Assembly: GCA_030064835.1 (NCBI GenBank)
Contig: JASJEE010000002.1
Span: forward strand, 1-64,000
Length of the DNA stretch: 64,000 nucleotides
Direction: 5' to 3'
Source: Microcoleaceae cyanobacterium MO_207.B10
GTDB taxonomy: Bacteria > Cyanobacteriota > Cyanobacteriia > Cyanobacteriales > Microcoleaceae
The translations under genes and the position numbers were made by a program. This document shows, piece after piece, positions 11,818 to 25,232 of the stretch. Position 1 is the first letter of the stretch; the number at the start of each line of letters is the position of its first letter. The notes below the pieces were generated by a model, which saw only the letters and a list, made by a program, of their open reading frames with translations, had not been told where the DNA came from and ran no database searches.

Positions 11818-12319
11818 ATCGGCAAATAATTCAAATAAATTTATGATTTAATGGGTGTAATACCATTTTTATAAAATGCTACATTGCTTGGTTATAGGTT
11901 TTAGGTGGTAGGTCTTAATAGAAGAAGTGTAAATGTTCCGATCCGAAGGGCAGATAATTTGTAACAAGATTTTTTGAGTTCGGTGTAAGATAGAGTGCAT
12001 AAATAGTGAATAAATTGGGAACTCAATCATTATTGGGTTCCTATTTATTTATCTCCAACTAAACCGGAAATGGGAATAGATAATTTGTAGTCATACTTTA
12101 AGATCGATGGTATTTTTCATAACTATCTAATACTAATTCACTGTTGCAGATGTCACAAATAGTGACGTTCCTAATGATGTAAAATAATTGCTGGCAATTA
12201 CTATTTGATGCCATAAAATCTAACTTTTAACTCCCGCGGAGGCGGGGACAAGCTTTTGTGAAACGGTATGAGATACCATGAATTTATCAGATCCCTAAAT
12301 TTTACAGAGGAATTCTGCC
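11818..12319. other. Spacer with family L and F repeats
   Basis: No gene. A family L element starts at 11858 (TAATACCATTTTTATAAAATG, then TTGGTTATAGGTTTTAGGTGGTAGGT). A single family F hairpin unit lies at 12229-12262 (CTCCCGCGGAGGCGGGGACAAGCTTTTG). A good Shine-Dalgarno (AGAGGAATT) precedes the following gene. Confidence 0.55.
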
Positions 12320-14515
12320 ATGGCTAATAGAGCTGAAACTATCAAAGATATTATTGAAAAGCGTCGCCCCCTTGCCCAAAATATTGAAACTACGGAAGCA
12401 AGTCTTAGGGAGCTTACCTCAGCCCTACAGGCCCTCGAATCTCAGCGCAATCAATTAATCACAAAGCTTGAAGAACCAACGCTTCGGGGTAAGTTGGCCG
12501 AAATAGATTTTTTGACCCTACACCTGAAAATTGCCACTGAGTCGGAGGCGTTGGCAAAACTTAAGGTGCGTTTTTCCCGCGATACTCTGAATATTGGCGT
12601 TGTGGGGCGTGCTAGGCAAGGTAAAAGTCGTCTGTTACAAAGCTTAACGGGCCTAACAACTACAGAAATTCCAGACGGCGATCGCCAACATTGTACGGGT
12701 GTCCGTAGCACTATTCGTCATAACCCTGGCGTTACAACTTATGGGGAGGTCTGGTTTCATTCGGAGCGATCGTTTATGGATGAGGTTATTGCCCCTTATT
12801 ATGAAAAGCTACGTCTAGGGGCTAAACCAAAGACTTTGGCTGAGTTTGCTTCTCAAAAGTTACCGTCCCTACCGCCAGAATTGCCTGGATATGCTGAACC
12901 GGGTGCGATGTACGAACATTTGAGTCGATATCACACAAATATTGATAAATATGTGGGGTTATTAAATTCACCTCCACGGCGTATTTCTAGTAATGAAATT
13001 CGGGAATATGTTGCTCAAGATACGCCGGACGGTCAGCGAATATTTTTTAATTATTTGGCAGTTAAAGAAGTTAAAATTACTTGCACTTTTCCTAATACTG
13101 AAGTGGGGCAAATTGCTTTAGTTGATATGCCGGGATTAGGTGATACTGGAATTGGGGATGAGGAGCGATTAATTAAAACATTAGGTCAGGATATTGATGC
13201 GGTTTTATTTGTGAGAATGCCAAGCGGGAAGGGTGACTATTGGGCAGATGTTGATGTGCGACTTTATGATATGGCTAGGGCGGCAATTGTAGATTTGCCT
13301 TTGGATTTATGGTCGTTTATGATTTTGAATCAAACTAATATTAATTCTGCCAATGGTGATAATTTGAATAATTGCCAAGATTTGGCGAATGAGATTGGGA
13401 AAAAACATCTTAAGTTGGTGGATTGTATTATTGCTAATTGTGCGGATTTGGAAGGAGCTAATACAAAAATATTAGATCGGGTTTTGGATTATTTGGCAAC
13501 TAAAATTCAAAGCTTAGATAGAGAATATGCTTCTTCTTGTCAGGAGAGGATGGTACAACTGCAAAAAATTGTGCAAACAGAGATAGAAAAAGCTCGTTTA
13601 GTTTTGGTTGGTACTGCTTCTAGTCAAAATGAAATGGGGGTTTTTCTACCTTTATATAATCAGTTTATGAGTAATTTGTCGGTGGGGTTGATGGAGGTGT
13701 TGGATAATTTTAAACAGCAGCGGAATGAGGTAGATGAGGACTTTTTTAAACCCCAGGTTGAGGCAGCTATTGCAGCTTGCAAAGAGAATACAGGAATTCC
13801 TTGTTTACAAGAGGTTAAGATTAGGCATCGGGAAAAAGGTTCTTGGGAAATTGTTTATGCTGAATATTTGCATAAGATTAGAACTCATTTAACTCGGCAT
13901 TTTAGTTCAATGGATAGTGGTTTGAAGCAAGTAATAGATGACGCTAAGTATCAGGTAACTCAGGTGTTGGTTGAAGCAGGAAATTTAGGTGGTTTGACTG
14001 CTGCACGGGGTTCTAAATTTTTGAAGGTTATGGCTGAGAATAAGGTTTCGCAAGAACAAGGTAATTTACAGAAAGCTTTTGGGAATTTATGGGATTTTGA
14101 AATGTCTTATGAGGTGAATTTTCATTATCGAATTAGACAGCATTTGGATGACTTGACTCCTGATGATACTTCTCTACGTTTATCTTCTAAACCTACTGCT
14201 GAAGAAGTGCTGGAAAATTTGGAGCAACTGCACCAAGAAACTGTTTATAAATGTCAAGAAGCTTTAGAAGATTTATATGCTGAACCTAAGTTAGCTGTGT
14301 TTGCTGCAGTGGAGGAATTTGTCGATCAAGTTTTGCGAGCTGAGGAAGTAAAAAATGAATGGCCCGTGTTTTTATATGAGGTGCGATCGCAAGTTTGGCC
14401 TGCTAATTTTAAACCAATGGGAGAGGGTTCTGATACTATTAGGGAATGGCAAAAATTAGTGGAAATAGTTGCTCAAACTAATCAATTAGAATTTCTACAA
14501 TTTATCAATTATTGA
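12320..14515 (+). CDS. Dynamin-like large GTPase
   Basis: A 731-aa protein. After an N-terminal coiled coil (about residues 5-55) comes a GTPase domain with P-loop GRARQGKS (96-103), switch-like TGVRS (126-130), DMPG (269-272, the Walker B/G3 motif) and NQTN (337-340) in place of the usual N/T-K-x-D of G4. The C-terminal 350 residues are helical with several coiled stretches, as in bacterial dynamin-like proteins. No clear transmembrane segment. The missing Lys/Asp of G4 may change nucleotide preference. It is the first of four genes on the same strand (with a second GTPase, an unrecognised protein and a vWA protein). A strong RBS precedes it. Bacterial dynamins remodel membranes or act in phage defence; which applies here is unknown. 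Confidence 0.8.
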   Translation: MANRAETIKDIIEKRRPLAQNIETTEASLRELTSALQALESQRNQLITKLEEPTLRGKLAEIDFLTLHLKIATESEALAKLKVRFSRDTLNIGVVGRARQGKSRLLQSLTGLTTTEIPDGDRQHCTGVRSTIRHNPGVTTYGEVWFHSERSFMDEVIAPYYEKLRLGAKPKTLAEFASQKLPSLPPELPGYAEPGAMYEHLSRYHTNIDKYVGLLNSPPRRISSNEIREYVAQDTPDGQRIFFNYLAVKEVKITCTFPNTEVGQIALVDMPGLGDTGIGDEERLIKTLGQDIDAVLFVRMPSGKGDYWADVDVRLYDMARAAIVDLPLDLWSFMILNQTNINSANGDNLNNCQDLANEIGKKHLKLVDCIIANCADLEGANTKILDRVLDYLATKIQSLDREYASSCQERMVQLQKIVQTEIEKARLVLVGTASSQNEMGVFLPLYNQFMSNLSVGLMEVLDNFKQQRNEVDEDFFKPQVEAAIAACKENTGIPCLQEVKIRHREKGSWEIVYAEYLHKIRTHLTRHFSSMDSGLKQVIDDAKYQVTQVLVEAGNLGGLTAARGSKFLKVMAENKVSQEQGNLQKAFGNLWDFEMSYEVNFHYRIRQHLDDLTPDDTSLRLSSKPTAEEVLENLEQLHQETVYKCQEALEDLYAEPKLAVFAAVEEFVDQVLRAEEVKNEWPVFLYEVRSQVWPANFKPMGEGSDTIREWQKLVEIVAQTNQLEFLQFINY

Positions 14516-14567
14516 AGAAGGTGGTAGGTGAATTAATAATTAATAATTAATAATTAATAATTAATAA

Positions 14568-14867
14568 TTACAGCATATTTCGCGCTGATGATGTACAAGG
14601 CGTGAATTGAAAATCTTGTAGTGCGGGTATCTTGCCCGCAAAGTATGTACCTCATAATACCGAATTGATAAATGTTTGCTACAAATATTATCAATCTTAG
14701 GTGTCGGGTGTGGGGTATAGAGTGTGGTTAAATCATAGGAAAAACAAAGAAAAAGGCTGGTTATCAAAGGGATAAAATGGAAAAAAATTATTAATTAGTT
14801 AATAGTTGAAGTTTGATTAAGCATAACATTCTTTTTTTTTATTGGTATAACATCGGAAAGCGCTGTA
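14568..14867. repeat. Family D element interrupted by a family B MITE
   Basis: Left end TTACAGCATATTTCGCGC and right end CATCGGAAAGCGCTGTA are imperfect inverted repeats (TACAGC/GCTGTA). Uninterrupted relatives at 21729-21819 and 36553-36642 (reversed) read straight through GTACCTCATAACAT or ATGTTATAAGGTAC where this copy is split. Confidence 0.75.
14655..14850. mobile_element. Family B MITE (TA-target type), copy 2
   Basis: Ends (TA)ATACCGAATTGATAAATGTTTGC and TTTTATTGGTAT(AA) are inverted copies of TTATACCAATT. The dinucleotide TA is present once in uninterrupted host elements and on both sides here, as expected for Tc1/mariner-IS630-type insertion. The interior contains GTGTCGGGTGTGGGGTA heptamer-like sequence. 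Further copies: 8441-8573 (partial), 25498-25682, 34632-34826. Confidence 0.8.
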
Positions 14868-15040
14868 TATTATTGATTATTTACTAATTAGTTTATTTGT
14901 AACATTCTCTCGCCGGATACCCGCGCGGGTACAAGGTTTATCTTCGTGTATACGGGGATGAGGGCATGGATTTTTTCACACCTGGTATTATTATCATTGA
15001 CAAAAAAGATTGACACAAAAATCGAGGAATTATTACTACT

Positions 15041-16009
15041 ATGAATGAACTAAAAATTACACTTTTAGGCCCTAGTGCTGTGGGTAAAACTAGCCTATTA
15101 ACTTCTATGTATGAACAGTTTAAAAGAATCAGTTTTCAGGGAAATTTGCAATTAATTCCAGAGCCAGAAAGTCAGGCTATTCTGAATAAACGTCTCCAGG
15201 AATTAAAAAGCATCACAGAAACTTTTAAAGTGCAACCCGGAGCAGGAATTCCGGGTTCTTCTGAGGTACGTTCGTTTATTTTTGATTTAGCTGAACGAGA
15301 AAAAAAGCCTTTTTTAAGACTTAATTTTTATGACTACCCAGGAGGTTATATTTCTGATAAAGCTAGCCCCAAAGAAAGAAAATTTGTGAGGGAATTAATG
15401 AATGATGCTGCTACAGTTGTGATTGCTATTGATACGCCAGCTTTGATGATGTCTAAGGGAAAATTTAATGAATATGTGAATAAACCAAAACAAATTACGG
15501 CGATGTTTAAGGAAGCTTATACTAATATAGCTGAACCTCGTTTAGTAATATTTGCTCCAGTTAAATGTGAGATGGAAATGAGAAAAGGAGAGAGAGCAGC
15601 GAAACAATTATTAGAACAGATAAAAAAAGAATATGCTGATTTACTAAACTTTTTATCATCTCCATCTTTAAATTCTCAAGTTGCTGTAGCTATTACTCCG
15701 GTGCAAACTTTAGGATGTGTAGTTTGTACAATGATTTCAGAGCCAAAAAAAGATTATTTACCTACTTTTGGGTTTAGGAAAATTAGTCGCGATGCTGAAT
15801 ATAATCCCCAGGATAATGACCAACCTTTACGTTATTTATTGCGGTTTTTATTGAAAATTCACCAGGAGCAACGCACACCTAAATTTTTACAAGCTGTGGT
15901 GGGTTGGATGGGTTTAGATGCTCATCTGAAAAATGCCGTAAGTCAGTTTGCTAAGGGTTGTAAAAATACAGGAGGTTTTGCAGTATTACAGGGTCAAGAT
16001 TTATTATGA
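15041..16009 (+). CDS. P-loop GTPase of double-GTPase / TRAFAC type
   Basis: A 322-aa protein with P-loop GPSAVGKT (residues 10-17), a G3-like motif YDYPGGY (97-103) and a strand VVIAIDTP in the position of the core beta-strand before G4; no canonical NKxD is obvious. It resembles small predicted TRAFAC-class GTPases of the double-GTPase (DO-GTPase2-like) group described in predicted conflict systems, but this placement is by eye. It has no membrane segment. The second gene of the four-gene cluster, 525 nt after the dynamin-like gene and separated from it by repeats. Start supported by GAGGAATT some 15 nt upstream. Confidence 0.65.
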   Translation: MNELKITLLGPSAVGKTSLLTSMYEQFKRISFQGNLQLIPEPESQAILNKRLQELKSITETFKVQPGAGIPGSSEVRSFIFDLAEREKKPFLRLNFYDYPGGYISDKASPKERKFVRELMNDAATVVIAIDTPALMMSKGKFNEYVNKPKQITAMFKEAYTNIAEPRLVIFAPVKCEMEMRKGERAAKQLLEQIKKEYADLLNFLSSPSLNSQVAVAITPVQTLGCVVCTMISEPKKDYLPTFGFRKISRDAEYNPQDNDQPLRYLLRFLLKIHQEQRTPKFLQAVVGWMGLDAHLKNAVSQFAKGCKNTGGFAVLQGQDLL

Positions 16010-16247
16010 ATAAGCTGTTAGGTTTTGGTCTAATACCATTTTTATAAAATATTCTTACATTGCTTGGTTATAGGTTTTAGGTGGTAGGTGGTAGGTATTA
16101 GGTCTTAATAGAAGAAGTGTAAATATTCCGATTCTATTGAGCTTCTGAATTTTACTGTAATAATATTTTTGAATTTGCTATTCCTTGGTAGATATAGCAA
16201 TTAGAAATGATTTGTAAAAATGTGAAAAATTCACAAAGGAGATTACT
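16010..16247. repeat. Family L repeat, copy 2
   Basis: Starts at 16031 with TAATACCATTTTTATAAAATATT, runs through TTGGTTATAGGTTTTAGGTGG and two or three GGTAGGT units, and continues with AATAGAAGAAGTGTAAATATTCCG, as in copies at 11858 and 40723. The right end is less clear here. An AGGAG Shine-Dalgarno precedes the next start. Confidence 0.6.
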
Positions 16248-17033
16248 GTGGAAATATATATTGAAAGTCGAGGTTTTTCTCAAGATGATGATTACCGTTG
16301 GTTAAAGGTTACTGAACAAAGTCAAACTAGGATAGATAAAGAAGATTTGCCAGGCATTATCCAAAAGGCTAATCAATTAATTGATACTGAGTCTGAGTCG
16401 GTAGTTTTAGCTAGGAATAATAATAAATTGCTATTATTAATAACAGGGATTAAGGCTGTCGGAAGAGTTGATTTTGCCGACCGTCAAATTCGGATTGCTG
16501 CTGCTTGGTTAATTGCAGATTGTCTGGATAATGAAATAGTTTTACGAATGTTAGCTACTACTGCTTTAAATCCAGAATCAAGACAATATTTAGCAGCAGA
16601 AATGAGTCAAGCTGTTAGTTTCGGAGGTGAAACGGGCTTTCAAGTTAATTTTGAGCATATACACAGATTAACTGATGTTAATAAAGCAAAAAATTCAGTG
16701 CAAAATAACTTGCCAAGTACAAGTAAAAAAATTGCCAAACTTTCACCAAAGCGCCAAGTAGAATTAGTGTCTGAACTCCTACAATATCGCTTACCTACTC
16801 AAAAGGGTTTAATAGTAGTTGTGACGGGAATTAAAAAAGCAGAAACTTTAATAAATGCTGGTATATGGCGCGGTTTATCTAGTTTAGTTATATCTGAAGA
16901 TTGGCAGATTATTCCGCATAATTTATCAGAGAATAATCAGTCGAATAAATTTTCCAACTATTTTAATCGTTTAATGATTATTCTGGGAATTATTGGTACA
17001 GTTTCTTTATTGGTTAAAACCTGCAATTTTTGA
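16248..17033 (+). CDS. Unrecognised GTPase/vWA-cluster protein with C-terminal anchor
   Basis: A 261-aa protein starting with GTG (residues MEIYIESRGFSQDDDYRWL), preceded by a clear AAAGGAG. The first 140 residues look like one alpha/beta domain (SVVLARNNNKLLLLITGI, RIAAAWLIADC); the middle is polar with K/S-rich linker; a second short segment LPTQKGLIVVVTGIKKAETL follows; residues about 240-258 are a membrane segment (LMIILGIIGTVSLLVK). It does not match a family I recognise with confidence. The N-terminus is reminiscent of GTPase-associated proteins (GAP1-like) that accompany predicted double-GTPase conflict systems, but this is inference mainly from context. Confidence 0.7.
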   Translation: MEIYIESRGFSQDDDYRWLKVTEQSQTRIDKEDLPGIIQKANQLIDTESESVVLARNNNKLLLLITGIKAVGRVDFADRQIRIAAAWLIADCLDNEIVLRMLATTALNPESRQYLAAEMSQAVSFGGETGFQVNFEHIHRLTDVNKAKNSVQNNLPSTSKKIAKLSPKRQVELVSELLQYRLPTQKGLIVVVTGIKKAETLINAGIWRGLSSLVISEDWQIIPHNLSENNQSNKFSNYFNRLMIILGIIGTVSLLVKTCNF

Positions 17034-17158
17034 TTATTTAACTAAAAGTTAAAACTATTAATTATTAGCTAAAATCGGCGGATTTAAGTCACCCACGCTG
17101 ATTTGAAAAAGCGCGACCTGAAGTGCCTTGTCTTGAATATCCACCATTATACGTCTTA

Positions 17159-17212
17159 AGAGCTGATGGCTGACCGCTGTTTGCGGAGCATTCCATCAGG
17201 AAGTGCTATTTC
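17159..17212. repeat. Family E palindrome
   Basis: Contains GCTGTTTGCGGAGCATTCCATCAGGAAGTGC. The core GCxxAGCATTCCG recurs many times in this window (18440, 36318, 38050, 46775, 49083, 50120, 58430, 58785), usually next to a GGAAATC-like inverted arm. Confidence 0.5.
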
Positions 17213-17341
17213 AACTTGTGAGTTATGATCATATCTTTCTTAGTGGCAAAGTCTAGTAAAATATTAGATATTGTAGACAAAATATGCAAAAATATATTCA
17301 ACTACAAATCTGTTGAATTAATCTCAAAAAGGAAAGAAAAA

Positions 17342-18073
17342 ATGCCTATTCCACAAATTTATAATCGGGATGTTTTTATTCTGATAGACCGTAGTGGTTC
17401 GATGACAATATCTGATAGCACTACAGGAAACAAAAATCGTTGGCAATATCTTCAAGAAACTGTACAAGGTCATGTATTTGAAATTCTATCTGAACAAGAT
17501 GATGATTATGGTATAATTTGTGATGAAGTAACTCTATATTTTTTCAATCGAAATCAACAACCGACTAAAACTATTTATCTGAGAGATGCTGTTCAAGTGC
17601 AAGGTGCTTTTAAGGAAAATAAACCAGGTGGAGCGACTTATATTGCACCTACTTTAAATGAAGCAATCTCTCAGTGGTTTTCCAATAGAACTGATGATAA
17701 AGGTGCTTTTATAATTATTTATACTGATGGGCAAATTGATGATAGTAAAGAATTTATTAATGTTATTGGTAAAACTTGTTCTAGTATAAATAGTCAAGAG
17801 GAAATTAAAATTTTAATGATTGGTGTAGGAAGTGATATTGAAACAGAAGGATCGATAGATTTTTACTTAGGAATTGATTTGAATGCGAATAAGTTTCAAT
17901 CTAGACGGGGAGAAGATTGTAATATCTTTATCTTTGATTTAATAGATGAAGTTATGGATGAGGGTATTATCGCTGCTCTAGAACGTCAGCTTGAAGGAGA
18001 CCCTAGAAAAGGATTAGGTACTTGGATTAAAGAAAAATATCCAGCTTTATATGGTAAATATTTTGGCTCTTAA
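17342..18073 (+). CDS. von Willebrand A domain protein (TerY-like)
   Basis: A 243-aa single-domain vWA protein. The metal-ion-dependent adhesion site is complete: DRSGS (residues 16-20), a Thr in PGGATYIAPTL, and Asp in IIYTDGQ. The last 30 residues (ERQLEGDPRKGLGTWIKEKYPALYGKYFGS) are not typical vWA and may be a partner-binding tail. The start MPIPQIYN is chosen because AAAGGAAAG lies just before it and it aligns with the domain edge; a start at 17225 would add 39 residues without recognisable sequence. The last gene of the GTPase/vWA cluster. vWA proteins act as scaffolds or signal switches with P-loop NTPases. Confidence 0.85.
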   Translation: MPIPQIYNRDVFILIDRSGSMTISDSTTGNKNRWQYLQETVQGHVFEILSEQDDDYGIICDEVTLYFFNRNQQPTKTIYLRDAVQVQGAFKENKPGGATYIAPTLNEAISQWFSNRTDDKGAFIIIYTDGQIDDSKEFINVIGKTCSSINSQEEIKILMIGVGSDIETEGSIDFYLGIDLNANKFQSRRGEDCNIFIFDLIDEVMDEGIIAALERQLEGDPRKGLGTWIKEKYPALYGKYFGS

Positions 18074-19247: not shown

Positions 19248-20756
19248 CTAATGAATATATCCTTTCAAAATACGATGACGTTTTGGGTCTTCTAACTTCT
19301 TCAAAGCTTTAACCTCTATTTGGCGAATTCTTTCCCTGGTTAAATTAAATGTCTCACCAATTTCTTTAAGAGTTTTTTCCTGACCATCATCTAAACCAAA
19401 TCGCATTCGCAAAACATTTCTTTCCCGATCAGTTAAAGTTTTCAATACAGTTTCTATATCTTCTTTTAAACAATTTTTAAATACATATTCTGCTGGTGTT
19501 TCCCCTTGAAATTCAATTTCTTGTTGTTCGATGCGATGTTTCCCTTTGCTGATAGGGTAGTCCAAAGATAAAGTTCCTTGAGCGCATTCGACAATAAACC
19601 GCAACTTTTCCGTTGTCATTTCCATGCGTGTAGCTACTTCCTCTGCAGTTAGAGGACAACATTCAACTGATATCTGGTTGACTATTTTCTTAATTTGGGA
19701 AACACTTTCATACAGGTAAACTGGCAACCGAATGATGCGAGAATAGTCGCAAATAGCTCTAGTAATAGCTTGGCGAATCCACCAAATGCCGTAAGTAGAA
19801 AATTTATAGCCTTTGGTGCGATCAAATTTTTCTGTGGCACGAATTAGCCCTAAACTTCCTTCTTGAATTAAGTCTTGGTAGTCCAACCCACGTCCCTGAT
19901 ATCGTTTGGCAATTGATGTTACTAGTCGCAGGTTAGCTGTGACCATTTTATTTTTTGCTCTTCTGCCTTTTTGCAGGCGATCGCTTAATTCTGATACACT
20001 GATTTTTGCTGCTGTTGCCCATTCTGCTTCATCAACTTCTTGCTGTAGTTTTTTCTCTAGTTTTTCACGACTTCTAATTAATACTAATAATTCATCAATT
20101 TGACAAGCTAAATTGCTTTCTTCTTCGGCACGTAAACGGGAAATTTTATTAATTTCTTGTTGATAAAATATAATTGAATCTTCAGTAAATGTTGCTTCTG
20201 GTGGCTCTTCATCTAGGTTATAGCCTGGTTGATAATTATACTGATTTGTGAATATTTGCTGAGATTTTGATTGTTTTGTGTGAGCTGCTGTTTCTAGCCA
20301 ATAAGTATCGTAAGAATTAGGATTTTTACAGTCAATTAACCACCATTTGGCTCTGAGATTAATATTGTCTAATTTATTATTTATTTTCTCTGGGGTAACT
20401 ATTACTAATTGATGATAATTTTTTGTGCCAATTAATAAAAAATTATCTGTACTTTCGTAGAGAGTGTGAGCTATACCTCTCATTAGGTTGTAAAGTTTAC
20501 AATCTTTTTGAAATTTTTCTGGTCGTAACTCGAATAGTAATACTTGTAAATTATCTTTTTCGTCATCATAAATTTTGTAAGCATCACAGATAGCTTCATC
20601 ACACTCCGTCGGTAATTTTAATTGTTCAATATTTAATTGTTCGGCTTGGAAATTATAACCAAGTTTTTCAAACAAAGCCACTATTTGCTTCGGGCTACTG
20701 ATTTGTTTTATGTCGTTTAAATCTAATGACTGCCCTATCATTTTAGCTGTCTCCAA
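19248..20756 (-). CDS. Sigma-70 family factor with extra N-terminal domain
   Basis: A 502-aa protein in two parts. Residues about 195-502 are a group 2-like sigma-70: region 1.2 (DSIIFYQQEINKISRLRAEEE), region 2 (LVTSIAKRYQGRGLDYQDLIQEG, KFSTYGIWWIRQAITRAI), region 3 (LTAEEVATRMEMTTEKLRF), region 4 (LTDRERNVLRMRFGLDDG, TLKEIGETFNLTRERIRQIE). Residues 1-190 are not sigma: KQIVALFEKLGYNFQAEQLNI, VLLFELRPEKFQ, HLVIVTPEK and similar strands recall the N-terminal regulatory or nuclease-like domain of some restriction/methylase proteins. This suggests a ligand- or DNA-state-regulated alternative sigma factor, which is inference. It is convergent with the GTPase cluster side; its own upstream spacer carries a family A MITE. 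Confidence 0.85.
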   Translation of the reverse strand: METAKMIGQSLDLNDIKQISSPKQIVALFEKLGYNFQAEQLNIEQLKLPTECDEAICDAYKIYDDEKDNLQVLLFELRPEKFQKDCKLYNLMRGIAHTLYESTDNFLLIGTKNYHQLVIVTPEKINNKLDNINLRAKWWLIDCKNPNSYDTYWLETAAHTKQSKSQQIFTNQYNYQPGYNLDEEPPEATFTEDSIIFYQQEINKISRLRAEEESNLACQIDELLVLIRSREKLEKKLQQEVDEAEWATAAKISVSELSDRLQKGRRAKNKMVTANLRLVTSIAKRYQGRGLDYQDLIQEGSLGLIRATEKFDRTKGYKFSTYGIWWIRQAITRAICDYSRIIRLPVYLYESVSQIKKIVNQISVECCPLTAEEVATRMEMTTEKLRFIVECAQGTLSLDYPISKGKHRIEQQEIEFQGETPAEYVFKNCLKEDIETVLKTLTDRERNVLRMRFGLDDGQEKTLKEIGETFNLTRERIRQIEVKALKKLEDPKRHRILKGYIH

Positions 20757-22172: not shown

Positions 22173-23777
22173 TTATGAAGTCCTAAACCGCACTAACTCT
22201 TCCCCAGTCTTAGCATCGTGAGCGTGAACAGTACACACCAAACAAGAATCAAAAGACCGAGCTACATGACCTACCTCCACAGGATCATTCACATCAGCGA
22301 TCGGAATACCTACTAACGCTTCCTCAATTGGTCCGCGCACACCCTCACCGTCGCGGGGTCCGACATTCCAAGTAGTCGGCGCAATAACTTGATAGTTATA
22401 AATTTTGCCATCCTCTATATCAACCCAATGACAAAGGGAACCACGACTAGCATCAGTGGCACCCCAACCCCGACCATCTCTTTCTTGAGGCTTAATATAC
22501 CAAGGGTCACGCAGTTTAAATTCCCGCAAACAATGTTCAACTTGCCGATATAACTTTGTCAGTTCGTGCATCCTGGCAAACACGCGCAAATGTACGCTCG
22601 GTCCGCCCATTTTCTTAAACATATCTAAAACTAAACCGTCTTTATGCTGCCAACTTTCTCCATGGTCGCCACCTGCTACCAATTCCCGTGCCAAAGCACC
22701 TACTTCCATCCGACCAAAATCTTGGTGAGATACAGCAGTTGACCAAGAATAAGCACCATCAAAGTCAACGTGGTTATTCGGAGTAGGAATAGTAAAACGA
22801 CTAAAAGGATGTATATTGCCCTCACCTTCGTTATACCAAGCGTGACTAGTATTCTCCCGTGCAAAACTATGATCCATCAAATGATGAGTATCTGTAGCAC
22901 TATCGTATACTCCACTCTTCATTATTAAGGCAGCATTCCGACCTTCAATAGTGGGAAACTGATATCTGTCTTCATGGGGCAAGTATCCCCAAGTCATATA
23001 TTTGTCTACACCCGCACCATATTTATCCAAACCAATATTGAGACCCATGCGCCAATAAAACCCAAGGTCTGAGTTAGCATGATTAGGATTTTCATCTAAC
23101 CATTCTAGGAATTCTTCATAAGTTTGAATTTGTTCAAACCTGTCAATAGAACAACCCAACCATATCGGTTCTAACCAGTTAGTGCGATAATATTCTAACA
23201 TCGCCCAAGCGCGGGTGACATCTGTAAGAGTGGGAGTACACATGACTCCACCAGGAACCATGAAACTAGAGTGAGGCCACTGACCGCCGAATAGAGCGTA
23301 TATTTCTACAGGTTTGGCTGCAACAGTTATGCCTGGTTCGTAGGAACTACCTGTGAATGGCGCGAAACGTTTGCAGGCTTCTTCGTAGAAGGGGCTGTTT
23401 TGATATTTTTTGTTAGTTAGGTCGATTGCATATAACCCATAAAAGTAGCGCGGATGACTTTGCAGGGTTTCTACTAGTTGACCGAGGTTACGAGCAAGGA
23501 TAGCGTTGCGCGGTACTTCTGTCATCCAAGCTGTATCTAACGCCCAAGATGCACAGGTTAGGTGAGAAGCGCCACAAATACCACATATTCTGGGGGTGAC
23601 AATGAGTCCTGCTTTTGGGTCTTTTCCTCGTAGAATGACTTCAAAACCGCGAAACATTTGCGCTTGTGTCCAAGCGTTGATTACTTGTCCATCTTGAATA
23701 TCAACTCTTACGTCTAAGTCTCCTTCTACGCGACCTACTGGGGAAATATCTAATGTTTGTACTCTAGTTTGAACCAT
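22173..23777 (-). CDS. hupL: Uptake [NiFe]-hydrogenase large subunit
   Basis: A 534-aa catalytic subunit that oxidises H2 formed by nitrogenase. The N-terminal nickel motif RICGICGASH (Cys65, Cys68) and the C-terminal motif DSCLVCTVH (Cys512, Cys515, His518) are intact. Sixteen residues follow His518 (AHDAKTGEELVRFRTS); in this family they are removed by the protease HupW after nickel insertion. Note Ser at position 511 in place of the common Pro (DPCxxC), a feature of cyanobacterial HupL. Downstream of hupS with a 320-nt gap, as usual in cyanobacteria. hupW and hyp genes are not in the window. Confidence 0.97.
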   Translation of the reverse strand: MVQTRVQTLDISPVGRVEGDLDVRVDIQDGQVINAWTQAQMFRGFEVILRGKDPKAGLIVTPRICGICGASHLTCASWALDTAWMTEVPRNAILARNLGQLVETLQSHPRYFYGLYAIDLTNKKYQNSPFYEEACKRFAPFTGSSYEPGITVAAKPVEIYALFGGQWPHSSFMVPGGVMCTPTLTDVTRAWAMLEYYRTNWLEPIWLGCSIDRFEQIQTYEEFLEWLDENPNHANSDLGFYWRMGLNIGLDKYGAGVDKYMTWGYLPHEDRYQFPTIEGRNAALIMKSGVYDSATDTHHLMDHSFARENTSHAWYNEGEGNIHPFSRFTIPTPNNHVDFDGAYSWSTAVSHQDFGRMEVGALARELVAGGDHGESWQHKDGLVLDMFKKMGGPSVHLRVFARMHELTKLYRQVEHCLREFKLRDPWYIKPQERDGRGWGATDASRGSLCHWVDIEDGKIYNYQVIAPTTWNVGPRDGEGVRGPIEEALVGIPIADVNDPVEVGHVARSFDSCLVCTVHAHDAKTGEELVRFRTS

Positions 23778-24097
23778 TTTTTATTAAAGCTCCAGAATAA
23801 TACAGTTATCAGTTATCAGTTATCAGTAGCTACAGTTTAATTTCTTGAGTAGGTTGGGTTAAGCGAAAGCGCAACCCAACAACAATATCTAAGTAGCTAG
23901 GTGTAATTAAATGTCTAAAGCAAATGAGGATGTATGTTTCTGATGACTTAGAAAAGCAATTATTGTCATTATCAATGGGAAGAAAGCAGAAATGACGGAG
24001 GACTTATTTTTTTTGGTTACCCTATCGGAAGCAAGCTACGTTTCCATGCTTTGCAACGCTAACGCAAAAACCCAATTGACAAAGCTATTTCCTTGTT
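23778..24097 (-). promoter_or_regulatory. hupS-hupL intergenic region with stem-loop and heptamers
   Basis: A 320-nt gap between the two hydrogenase genes. GTTGGGTT (23853-23860) pairs with AACCCAAC (23873-23880) with a small GC inner stem, giving a strong hairpin without a T-tract. TCAGTTA heptamers lie at 23806-23830. Similar spacers with hairpins are known between hupS and hupL of other cyanobacteria and are thought to stabilise or tune the mRNA. Confidence 0.6.
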
Positions 24098-25060
24098 TTA
24101 AACTGTAAAAAAGTCTTCTTCTGCCCAAGCTGGAGTCGAGTCTTTGGCAACGATACTGAGCAAGGCATAATCTTTCCGGTTGACTCCGATTGGCAATTCT
24201 TTGGGAACTCCCATTACTGTTTGAGTTTTGAATACTGTTCCCGGTACGAGGTCGTGGAATGGAAATTCTGGTTCTGTACAACCTAAGCATGGCATTCCAG
24301 CACGAGTTTTTGAGGAAACTCGATTCCACAAAATTCGGTTGCATGAGGAGTGAGTCATGGGTCCGCGACAACCTAAGTCATAGAATAGACATCCTTTGCG
24401 TTGCCCAAAATCTGATGTTGAGGCTTTGTAGGCAAAATGAACGTTGCGAGTACAACCTGTTTGAGTAAAGCTTTTGAAGAATGTTTCTGGGCGATGAAAT
24501 TCGTCTAAGGTAATGTCGTCTAGTCTCCCCATAGCGATCGCCACTAATATTTGGGAAATCCAATCTGGGTGTGCGGGGCAACCAGGAATATTGATGACTG
24601 GATATCCGGCTTTACTTTTGTAGTCGTCTCCTAAAAGTCCGCCTTTTTTCCGCTTCAAAAATTGCAAGCCTTGAGATTCACTGGGATTTGGTTCCATTGC
24701 TGGAATACCACCATAAGTAGCGCAGTCTCCCACCGCTACTACAAAACCCGCTACTTCTGCTAATTCTGTTACCCAATCTTTCATCGGCCGATCGGCAAAA
24801 CGATTCCATTCTCCTGTACCATAAGGAGCGTTAATTACTGTGCCTTCGTATACAAAAACATCTAAATGTATTTTTCCAGAAATACAGTCTTCTAATAGTT
24901 GTTTAACGTTTGTACCAAGTTCAAATCCTAGAGAAGGATGCCAGAGTATATTGATGCCGAAGTCTGTGATTAGGTCACAAATATTTGGTTCTTCAGCATT
25001 GAGAAATGAGATAGTATTGCCAGAACAGGCTCCGCCTTGGAGCCAGAGTAGATTTATCAT
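24098..25060 (-). CDS. hupS: Uptake [NiFe]-hydrogenase small subunit
   Basis: The 320-aa electron-transfer subunit carrying three iron-sulfur clusters. Seen: LLWLQGGACSGNT at the N-terminus (first cluster Cys), GDCATYGGIPA, INIPGCPAHPDW, and the distal cluster cysteines TGCTRNVHF, KGCLFYDLGCRGP, CNRILWNR, CLGCTEPEFPF. There is no twin-arginine signal peptide, typical for cyanobacterial HupS, which faces the cytoplasmic side of the membrane. The start MINLLWLQGG is preferred over an in-frame TTG three codons upstream because the family begins here. Confidence 0.97.
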   Translation of the reverse strand: MINLLWLQGGACSGNTISFLNAEEPNICDLITDFGINILWHPSLGFELGTNVKQLLEDCISGKIHLDVFVYEGTVINAPYGTGEWNRFADRPMKDWVTELAEVAGFVVAVGDCATYGGIPAMEPNPSESQGLQFLKRKKGGLLGDDYKSKAGYPVINIPGCPAHPDWISQILVAIAMGRLDDITLDEFHRPETFFKSFTQTGCTRNVHFAYKASTSDFGQRKGCLFYDLGCRGPMTHSSCNRILWNRVSSKTRAGMPCLGCTEPEFPFHDLVPGTVFKTQTVMGVPKELPIGVNRKDYALLSIVAKDSTPAWAEEDFFTV

Positions 25061-25232
25061 TTTCCCCAATTCTGTTCTTTTTTATATGAGGTTGAGAGCA
25101 AATTCACAATGAGATTTTGTCGCGCTCTGCTTCAACCTTTATGGAATTATAAACGCCATATAATGCTAAGTTTGTATTTATTTATAAAATTTTTTATTAT
25201 TGATTAATTGTTGGTTTGATTACAGAGTTTAT

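What the first reader, a model, noticed from the sequence alone, without database searches (positions are those of the whole stretch)
12320..18073. Four-gene cluster: dynamin-like GTPase, second GTPase, unknown anchored protein, vWA protein
Seen: four co-oriented genes, two with P-loops (GRARQGKS and GPSAVGKT) but neither with a standard NKxD, one unrecognised protein with a C-terminal membrane segment, and a vWA protein with an intact metal site (DRSGS...TDG). Known: vWA proteins pair with P-loop NTPases (MoxR, TRAFAC double GTPases with GAP1-like partners) in predicted conflict systems described by comparative genomics, and bacterial dynamins occur in phage defence. Inference: this set may be a membrane-directed defence or stress module in which the vWA protein and the small GTPase gate the dynamin. 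I have not seen this exact combination named. Repeats fill the gaps between the genes, so they may not be one transcript.
Basis: partly seen in the sequence, partly recalled or inferred. Interest (0 to 1): 0.75.

Follow-up and report, generated by a model that had tools for sequence, protein, structure and literature searches.

The report
Conserved dynamin and switch-GTPase membrane module
Three of the four genes (a dynamin-like membrane GTPase, a small switch GTPase and a membrane-anchored adaptor) form a real, recurring gene set found across cyanobacteria and in two actinobacteria, and a fourth protein has joined it repeatedly; it looks like an undescribed membrane signalling or defence module, but no function has been shown.

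Summary
In detail: all four genes are at the stated places, and the grouping is not chance. Dynamin, GTPase and 261-aa protein (P3) form a conserved, usually tightly spaced gene set (60 of 80 dynamin loci; median gaps 18 and 14 bp). It is widespread but patchy in cyanobacteria, occurs on plasmids, and is present in two actinobacteria. All 31 genomes with P3 also have the dynamin (Fisher p = 6e-18). The vWA gene follows P3 in at least 11 other genomes and three dynamin clades, so it is a recurrent add-on.
Protein 1 has the fold of BDLP-type bacterial dynamins. Protein 2 is a DO-GTPase2. P3 matches no family; it is a tail-anchored protein, its cytoplasmic part confidently modelled with longin-like strand order (weak matches to FNIP2, FLCN, NPRL2/3), and its outside tail varies (Ig-like, peptidoglycan-binding, WD40, coiled coil). 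Relatives fuse these parts to HEPN, AAA_35 and caspase domains.
Best reading: a membrane-bound GTPase switch that recruits or releases a dynamin, resembling the DO-GTPase/GAP1 conflict systems but lacking GAP1. A conflict role is inferred only. In this genome the set is loosened by repeats, and in Okeania by insertions and by relocation of the vWA gene.

The parts
12320..14515 (+). Dynamin-like GTPase (731 aa) of BDLP type: N-terminal neck helices, G domain (G1 GRARQGKS 96-103, G2 T126, G3 DMPGLGDT 269-276), long helical trunk
   Evidence: Dynamin_N below cut-off; AF2 pLDDT 87.8, Foldseek best BDLP 2j69 E 9.8e-13, SynDLP, IniA; motif conservation
15041..16009 (+). Small TRAFAC GTPase, DO-GTPase2 family (322 aa); G1 GPSAVGKT, G3 DYPG, G4-like VKCE, G5-like TPVQT
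   Evidence: PF19993 E 1.5e-7 above gathering cut-off; 25 of 25 homologues match; motif table
16248..17033 (+). P3 (261 aa): cytoplasmic longin-like domain (about 1-122) plus a small alpha/beta part, then one C-terminal transmembrane helix (242-260); tail-anchored, N-terminus inside
   Evidence: No family match; AF2 pLDDT 95.2; weak longin/DENN-type matches; TM and charge analysis
17225..18073 (+). vWA protein (282 aa), MIDAS intact; the N-terminal 39 residues are an in-frame extension also kept in Okeania, core starts at 17342
   Evidence: PF00092 above cut-off; MIDAS alignment; extension kept without indel in seven sequences
14516..15040 (.). 525-bp gap between dynamin and GTPase, with AT-rich short repeats; median gap in relatives is 18 bp
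16020..16140 (+). Copy of a dispersed repeat of about 121 bp, in the gap between GTPase and P3; about 40 partial copies in this genome, another at 11854-11942

Best explanation
This is one member of a conserved three-gene module (dynamin, DO-GTPase2, P3), here with an accessory vWA gene. P3 sits in the membrane by a C-terminal helix; its longin-like cytoplasmic domain binds the small GTPase and acts as platform or regulator, while in many relatives a variable outside tail could sense the envelope. When the membrane or envelope is disturbed (for example by a phage or a competitor), P3 changes the nucleotide state of the DO-GTPase2, which recruits or releases the BDLP-type dynamin to oligomerise on the membrane, to seal or remodel it or to kill the compromised cell. 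The vWA protein binds a peptide or protein ligand through its metal site and adds a second control; in relatives this role is coupled to AAA_35 ATPases. Shown by computation: gene set, folds, motifs, membrane topology (predicted), co-occurrence, domain fusions. Inferred: direct binding, order of signalling, trigger, conflict role.
For: Conserved order with operon-like gaps in 60 of 80 dynamin loci, 31 of 31 P3 genomes with dynamin, same three genes in Nonomuraea and probably Streptomyces. BDLP fold. DO-GTPase2 in 25 of 25. P3 tail anchor, N-in charge bias 44 to 3, variable outside domains He_PIG, PG_binding_1, WD40. Longin strand order in a confident model, weak matches to GTPase-regulating longin proteins; longin domains bind GTPases (PMC3521125). 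Gene doubling of GTPase, mostly together with P3 (L138, L166, L167, L178). Fusions of the same dynamin to AAA_35 and HEPN_Swt1, of the same vWA to caspase C14 and AAA_35. Patchy distribution, plasmid copies, decayed copies. A bacterial dynamin (DynA) delays phage infection (PMC9950537).
Against: No functional data for any member. No phage or viral record carries the dynamin and PADLOC gives no real hit. The longin assignment rests on topology and Foldseek E-values no better than 0.007. In this genome the genes are 191-525 bp apart, and in Okeania insertions separate them and the vWA gene lies elsewhere. No tests of physical interaction were possible. Downstream genes vary and many are housekeeping.
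Confidence: 0.5

Rival explanations
1. Housekeeping membrane maintenance: the set remodels or repairs plasma or thylakoid membrane under light or osmotic stress, with P3 placing the dynamin, and has nothing to do with conflict.
For: Dynamins such as SynDLP bind thylakoid lipids (PMC9950537); the dynamin is well conserved (58% mean column identity); the vWA is 95% identical to that of Okeania, which points to strong purifying selection; some neighbouring genes are housekeeping.
Against: P3 in only 31 and dynamin in 40 of 99 related genomes; plasmid copies; two actinobacteria without thylakoids hold the core; fusions to HEPN, caspase and AAA_35 domains; several decayed copies.
Confidence: 0.25
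2. It is a GAP1-less member of the DO-GTPase conflict systems of Kaur et al. 2020, P3 being a shortened or diverged GAP1.
For: DO-GTPase2 domain; P3 sits directly downstream of the GTPase as GAP1 does, has a C-terminal TM and variable outside domains as GAP1-N2 proteins do (PMC7159879); a sister branch pairs the same dynamin with a DO-GTPase1/2-type protein and a roughly 1000-aa protein in the GAP1 position.
Against: No P3 homologue matches any GAP1 model; GAP1-N2 occurs in 0 of 292 cyanobacterial genomes although the control genome Corynebacterium glutamicum is hit; the roughly 1000-aa protein has no Pfam GAP1 match either; Walker B glutamate, zinc ribbon, FNIII and GASH are missing.
Confidence: 0.15
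3. The vWA gene is an unrelated neighbour in the window; only the other three belong together.
For: vWA follows P3 in only 5 of the 60 dynamin loci that hold the core; in five Okeania genomes it lies on another contig.
Against: P3-vWA adjacency in at least 11 other genomes, in three separate dynamin clades with 5 changes against 8.8 in shuffles, 0 of 500 as low; both dynamin and vWA are fused to AAA_35 in the same loci.
Confidence: 0.1

Closest known systems
DO-GTPase/GAP1 GTPase-centric conflict systems (Kaur et al. 2020, PMC7159879)
   Same: TRAFAC GTPase of the DO-GTPase2 family, partner gene directly downstream, membrane anchoring, variable extracytoplasmic and effector domains, patchy spread
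   Different: No GAP1, no FNIII or GASH protein, no zinc ribbon, Walker B glutamate missing in the window; a dynamin is the constant third part; those systems were reported nearly absent from cyanobacteria
Bacterial dynamin-like proteins (BDLP, SynDLP, IniA, Cj-DLP1/2, DynA)
   Same: Fold, P-loop, G2 and G3 motifs, helical neck and trunk; one member delays phage infection
   Different: Separate sequence family (best PDB sequence match only mitofusin FZO1, E 1e-4); degenerate G4; constant small-GTPase and P3 partners rather than a second dynamin
Longin/DENN and Roadblock GTPase regulators (FLCN-FNIP, NPRL2/3, DENN; MglB in bacteria; PMC3521125)
   Same: Strand and helix order of P3 1-122, encoded next to a small GTPase, weak Foldseek matches
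   Different: No sequence link; P3 is tail-anchored; GTPase partner is DO-GTPase2, not Rab, Rag or MglA
MoxR-vWA ternary systems (PMC7159879)
   Same: vWA with intact metal site; vWA fused to AAA-type and caspase effectors in relatives
   Different: No MoxR; the AAA partner, where present, is AAA_35
LeoABC dynamins
   Same: Bacterial dynamin gene set
   Different: Only a chance-level PADLOC match (E 0.018); no small GTPase or P3 in that system as far as I know (from memory)

Membership tests
DO-GTPase/GAP1 system | DO-GTPase domain | tested here: met
   PF19993 above gathering score in the window; 25 of 25 homologues match at E <= 0.01
DO-GTPase/GAP1 system | GAP1 protein (GAP1-N, -M, -C) | tested here: not met
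   P3 and its homologues match no GAP1 model; GAP1-N2 in 0 of 292 cyanobacteria, control positive
DO-GTPase/GAP1 system | Conserved glutamate in the Walker B motif | tested here: not met
   Assuming it is the residue after DxxG: G102 in the window; Glu in 8 of 25 homologues
DO-GTPase/GAP1 system | Two paralogous GTPases (only 38% of systems) | tested here: not met
   One in the window; doubled in L138, L166, L167, L178
DO-GTPase/GAP1 system | FNIII-repeat or GASH partner | tested here: not met
   None among the four proteins in Pfam
Bacterial dynamin-like protein | G1, G2 and G3 motifs of a dynamin G domain | tested here: met
   Invariant GKS, T126 and DxPGLGDT in 30 sequences
Bacterial dynamin-like protein | BDLP-type fold with helical neck and trunk | tested here: met
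   AF2 model; Foldseek 2j69 E 9.8e-13, probability 1.00; global TM-scores are low (0.3) as expected for a flexible two-part protein
Bacterial dynamin-like protein | G4 (T/N)KxD | tested here: not met
   N337 invariant, rest variable
Bacterial dynamin-like protein | Membrane binding and GTP hydrolysis | not testable with these tools
   Needs purified protein and liposomes
Longin-domain protein (P3) | beta-beta-alpha-beta-beta-beta-alpha-alpha topology (standard longin order, from memory) | tested here: met
   DSSP of the pLDDT 95 model: E2-7 E17-21 (+E26-29) H36-42 E51-57 E60-74 E80-90 H93-107 H109-122
Longin-domain protein (P3) | Significant structural match to known longin domains | tested here: inconclusive
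   FNIP2 E 0.007, then TagF, FLCN, DENND10, GATOR1 entries, LOV; none below 0.001, TM-scores near 0.2-0.3
vWA with MIDAS | DxSxS ... T ... D metal site | tested here: met
   DRSGS, T, TDG in the window; degenerate in L077 and L088
MoxR-vWA ternary system | MoxR AAA+ ATPase gene beside the vWA gene | tested here: not met
   The neighbouring ORFs scanned show no AAA protein
Known anti-phage defence system | Match to a PADLOC model | tested here: not met
   Only chance-level matches
Known anti-phage defence system | Protection against phage | not testable with these tools
   Needs plaque assays

The most novel reading that the evidence does not exclude
A previously unnamed, phylum-crossing bacterial signalling module in which a tail-anchored longin-type receptor controls a small GTPase that in turn switches a dynamin at the membrane: a prokaryotic counterpart of the longin/DENN, small GTPase and dynamin logic of eukaryotic membranes, used in immunity.
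Probability: 0.22. Interest if true: 0.85.

Novelty: new variant of a known kind. Interest (0 to 1): 0.62.

Why it matters
DO-GTPase conflict systems were reported to be nearly absent from cyanobacteria; here a DO-GTPase2 is constant in a widespread cyanobacterial gene set with a dynamin, and the core also occurs in two actinobacteria. The role of bacterial dynamins is an open question; a defined switch GTPase and a membrane-anchored partner give it testable parts. If P3 is a longin protein, the pairing of longin regulator, small GTPase and dynamin would be a bacterial parallel to eukaryotic membrane control.

Tried and rejected
P3 as Frag1/DRAM (Pfam E 0.046, matching mainly the C-terminal hydrophobic part): rejected. 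P3 as GAP1: no match. P3 against solved structures by sequence: nothing. P3 against viral structures: nothing below 0.001. Idea that vWA-linked P3 proteins lack the outside tail: not significant (p = 0.15). Promoters and terminators in the window: numbers as in shuffles, so they do not decide whether it is one transcript. Literature: no paper in the held library names this combination; most subscription papers are not held. Shorter vWA start at 17342 considered; the upstream 39 codons are kept open without indels in seven sequences, so 17225 is more likely.
Full report
1. Observation. The four ORFs are at the stated places and on one strand. Pfam places protein 2 in DO-GTPase2 (E 1.5e-7, above the curated cut-off) and protein 4 in VWA; protein 1 reaches Dynamin_N only below cut-off; protein 3 (P3) matches nothing. 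PADLOC gives only chance-level matches.

2. Is the grouping real? In 99 related genomes P3 occurs in 31 and the dynamin in 40; every P3 genome has the dynamin (Fisher p = 6e-18). These genomes are related, so the p-value overstates independence, but the hits are also physically linked: most of the extended loci read dynamin-GTPase-P3 in that order. A scan of one genome per species gave 191 loci encoding the dynamin; of the best 80, 60 have GTPase and P3 downstream on the same strand, with median gaps of 18 and 14 bp. Most exceptions are short contigs, Okeania loci with insertions, or dynamin paralogues. Titles cover many cyanobacterial families; a few MAGs are labelled Chloroflexota, Pseudomonadota or Bacillota and may be misassigned or transferred. 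Ten records of the plasmid collection hold the dynamin (one of them, Nonomuraea, is chromosome-sized). In two actinobacteria, Nonomuraea gerenzanensis and a Streptomyces aurantiacus plasmid, dynamin and GTPase are adjacent and the third gene is a P3 homologue (E 4e-18) or a protein of the same position and build (E 0.055; inconclusive by sequence). No viral or phage record matches.

3. The vWA gene. It follows P3 in five of those 80 loci (Argonema, Oscillatoria, two Symploca, Coleofasciculus) and in six further genomes of the relatives set (G002, G004, G013, G014, G019, G031; the copy in G004 is decayed). Coleofasciculus sp. LEGE 07092 (L171) has the same four separate genes. On a tree of 101 dynamins the vWA-linked loci fall in three separate places, 5 changes against 8.8 in shuffled labels, none of 500 as low (quick method). 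Thus vWA is a repeated partner, not a constant part. In five Okeania-type genomes a 95%-identical vWA lies on another contig, although the dynamin there is 82-83% and P3 65-67% identical to the window's.

4. Larger versions. Where vWA is linked, three further features are common: an AAA_35 gene of about 440-460 aa upstream, a dynamin fused behind an AAA_35 domain (in L088 also HEPN_Swt1), and a vWA fused behind AAA_35. The same vWA family is fused elsewhere to a caspase C14 domain and to a LuxR-type HTH. Dynamin paralogues stand next to a CHAT and an nSTAND1 gene (L095), or next to a DO-GTPase1/2-type gene and a roughly 1000-aa protein in the position of GAP1 (L097, Stanieria plasmid). Such partners are typical of conflict systems; this is the main ground for a conflict role.

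5. The parts. The dynamin model (pLDDT 87.8) has a helical neck, a G domain and a long helical trunk; its best solved matches are BDLP (9.8e-13), SynDLP, IniA and Campylobacter DLPs. The GTPase keeps G1, G3 and an invariant K-C-E in the place of NKxD. P3 has a TM helix in 58 of 66 homologues, with 2.9 basic residues on the N side against 1.1 on the C side (44 against 3 proteins), so the N-domain is predicted to be cytoplasmic. Beyond the TM some homologues carry Ig-like, peptidoglycan-binding, WD40 or coiled-coil-like extensions. The P3 model (pLDDT 95.2) has the order beta-beta-alpha-beta-beta-beta-alpha-alpha of a longin domain; the Foldseek list has no match below 0.001 but is rich in longin- or PAS-type proteins (FNIP2 0.007, FLCN, DENND10, GATOR1 subunits, LOV). 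Longin domains bind GTPases and have a PAS-like fold (PMC3521125). I treat this as a lead.

6. State in this genome. Gaps are 525, 238 and 191 bp and hold repeats; one 121-bp element has about 40 partial copies genome-wide. Promoter- and terminator-like sites are no more frequent than in shuffles. The vWA N-terminal extension (17225-17341) is kept open and without indels in Okeania while the sequence before it is not alignable, so the longer start is likely and gives a hydrophobic or amphipathic N-terminus.

7. Mechanism. Most likely P3 is a membrane platform for the DO-GTPase2, the GTPase is the switch, and the dynamin is the membrane-acting output, with vWA as a ligand-binding control. Gene set, folds, motifs and topology are computed; binding, direction of signal and trigger are inferred. 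A conflict role is favoured over housekeeping because of patchy and plasmid-borne occurrence, decayed copies and effector fusions, but it is not shown. My separate estimates: conserved gene set 0.95; membrane-anchored P3 partnering the GTPase 0.75; longin fold 0.5; conflict rather than housekeeping 0.6.

8. Known or new. The nearest described systems are the DO-GTPase/GAP1 systems (PMC7159879), which are defined by GAP1 and were said to be nearly absent from cyanobacteria; GAP1-N2 is absent from 292 cyanobacterial genomes here. The present set fails several defining features, so it is not filed there; it works in a similar style. No paper naming the combination was found in the held library.

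Noticed in passing
window 17225-17341: The vWA reading frame has a 39-residue N-terminal extension (MIISFLVAKSSKILDIVDKICKNIF...) that is conserved without indels in Okeania and looks hydrophobic or amphipathic, so the vWA protein may also touch the membrane.
   Followed up: partly
L211-L214, L229 (Okeania-type genomes): A vWA 95% identical to the window's lies on a different contig from the dynamin set, far more conserved than P3 (65-67%) or the dynamin (82-83%); in several of these genomes large genes, one a 1770-aa Ser/Thr kinase-AAA-GAF-histidine kinase, separate dynamin and GTPase.
   Followed up: partly
L097:11460-15778 and L233:9173-13378: A sister branch pairs the same dynamin family with a DO-GTPase1/2-type protein and a roughly 1000-aa protein in the GAP1 position that no Pfam model recognises; the two copies are related to each other (E 2e-32).
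   Followed up: partly
L217, L218, L219: The vWA family of this cluster is the C-terminal part of 712-809 aa proteins; the one scanned (L218) carries a caspase C14 domain, which suggests a recruitment domain shared between several effector systems.
   Followed up: partly
L088:5606-9526: One protein joins AAA_35, a HEPN_Swt1 domain and the dynamin.
   Followed up: partly
window 16020-16140 and 11854-11942: Dispersed repeat of about 121 bp with about 40 partial copies in this genome, mostly 77-95% identical.
   Followed up: partly
window 22173-25069: Genes for large and small subunits of a NiFe hydrogenase on the minus strand, near a 502-aa sigma-70-type protein (19248-20756) with a long N-terminal extension.
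   Followed up: no
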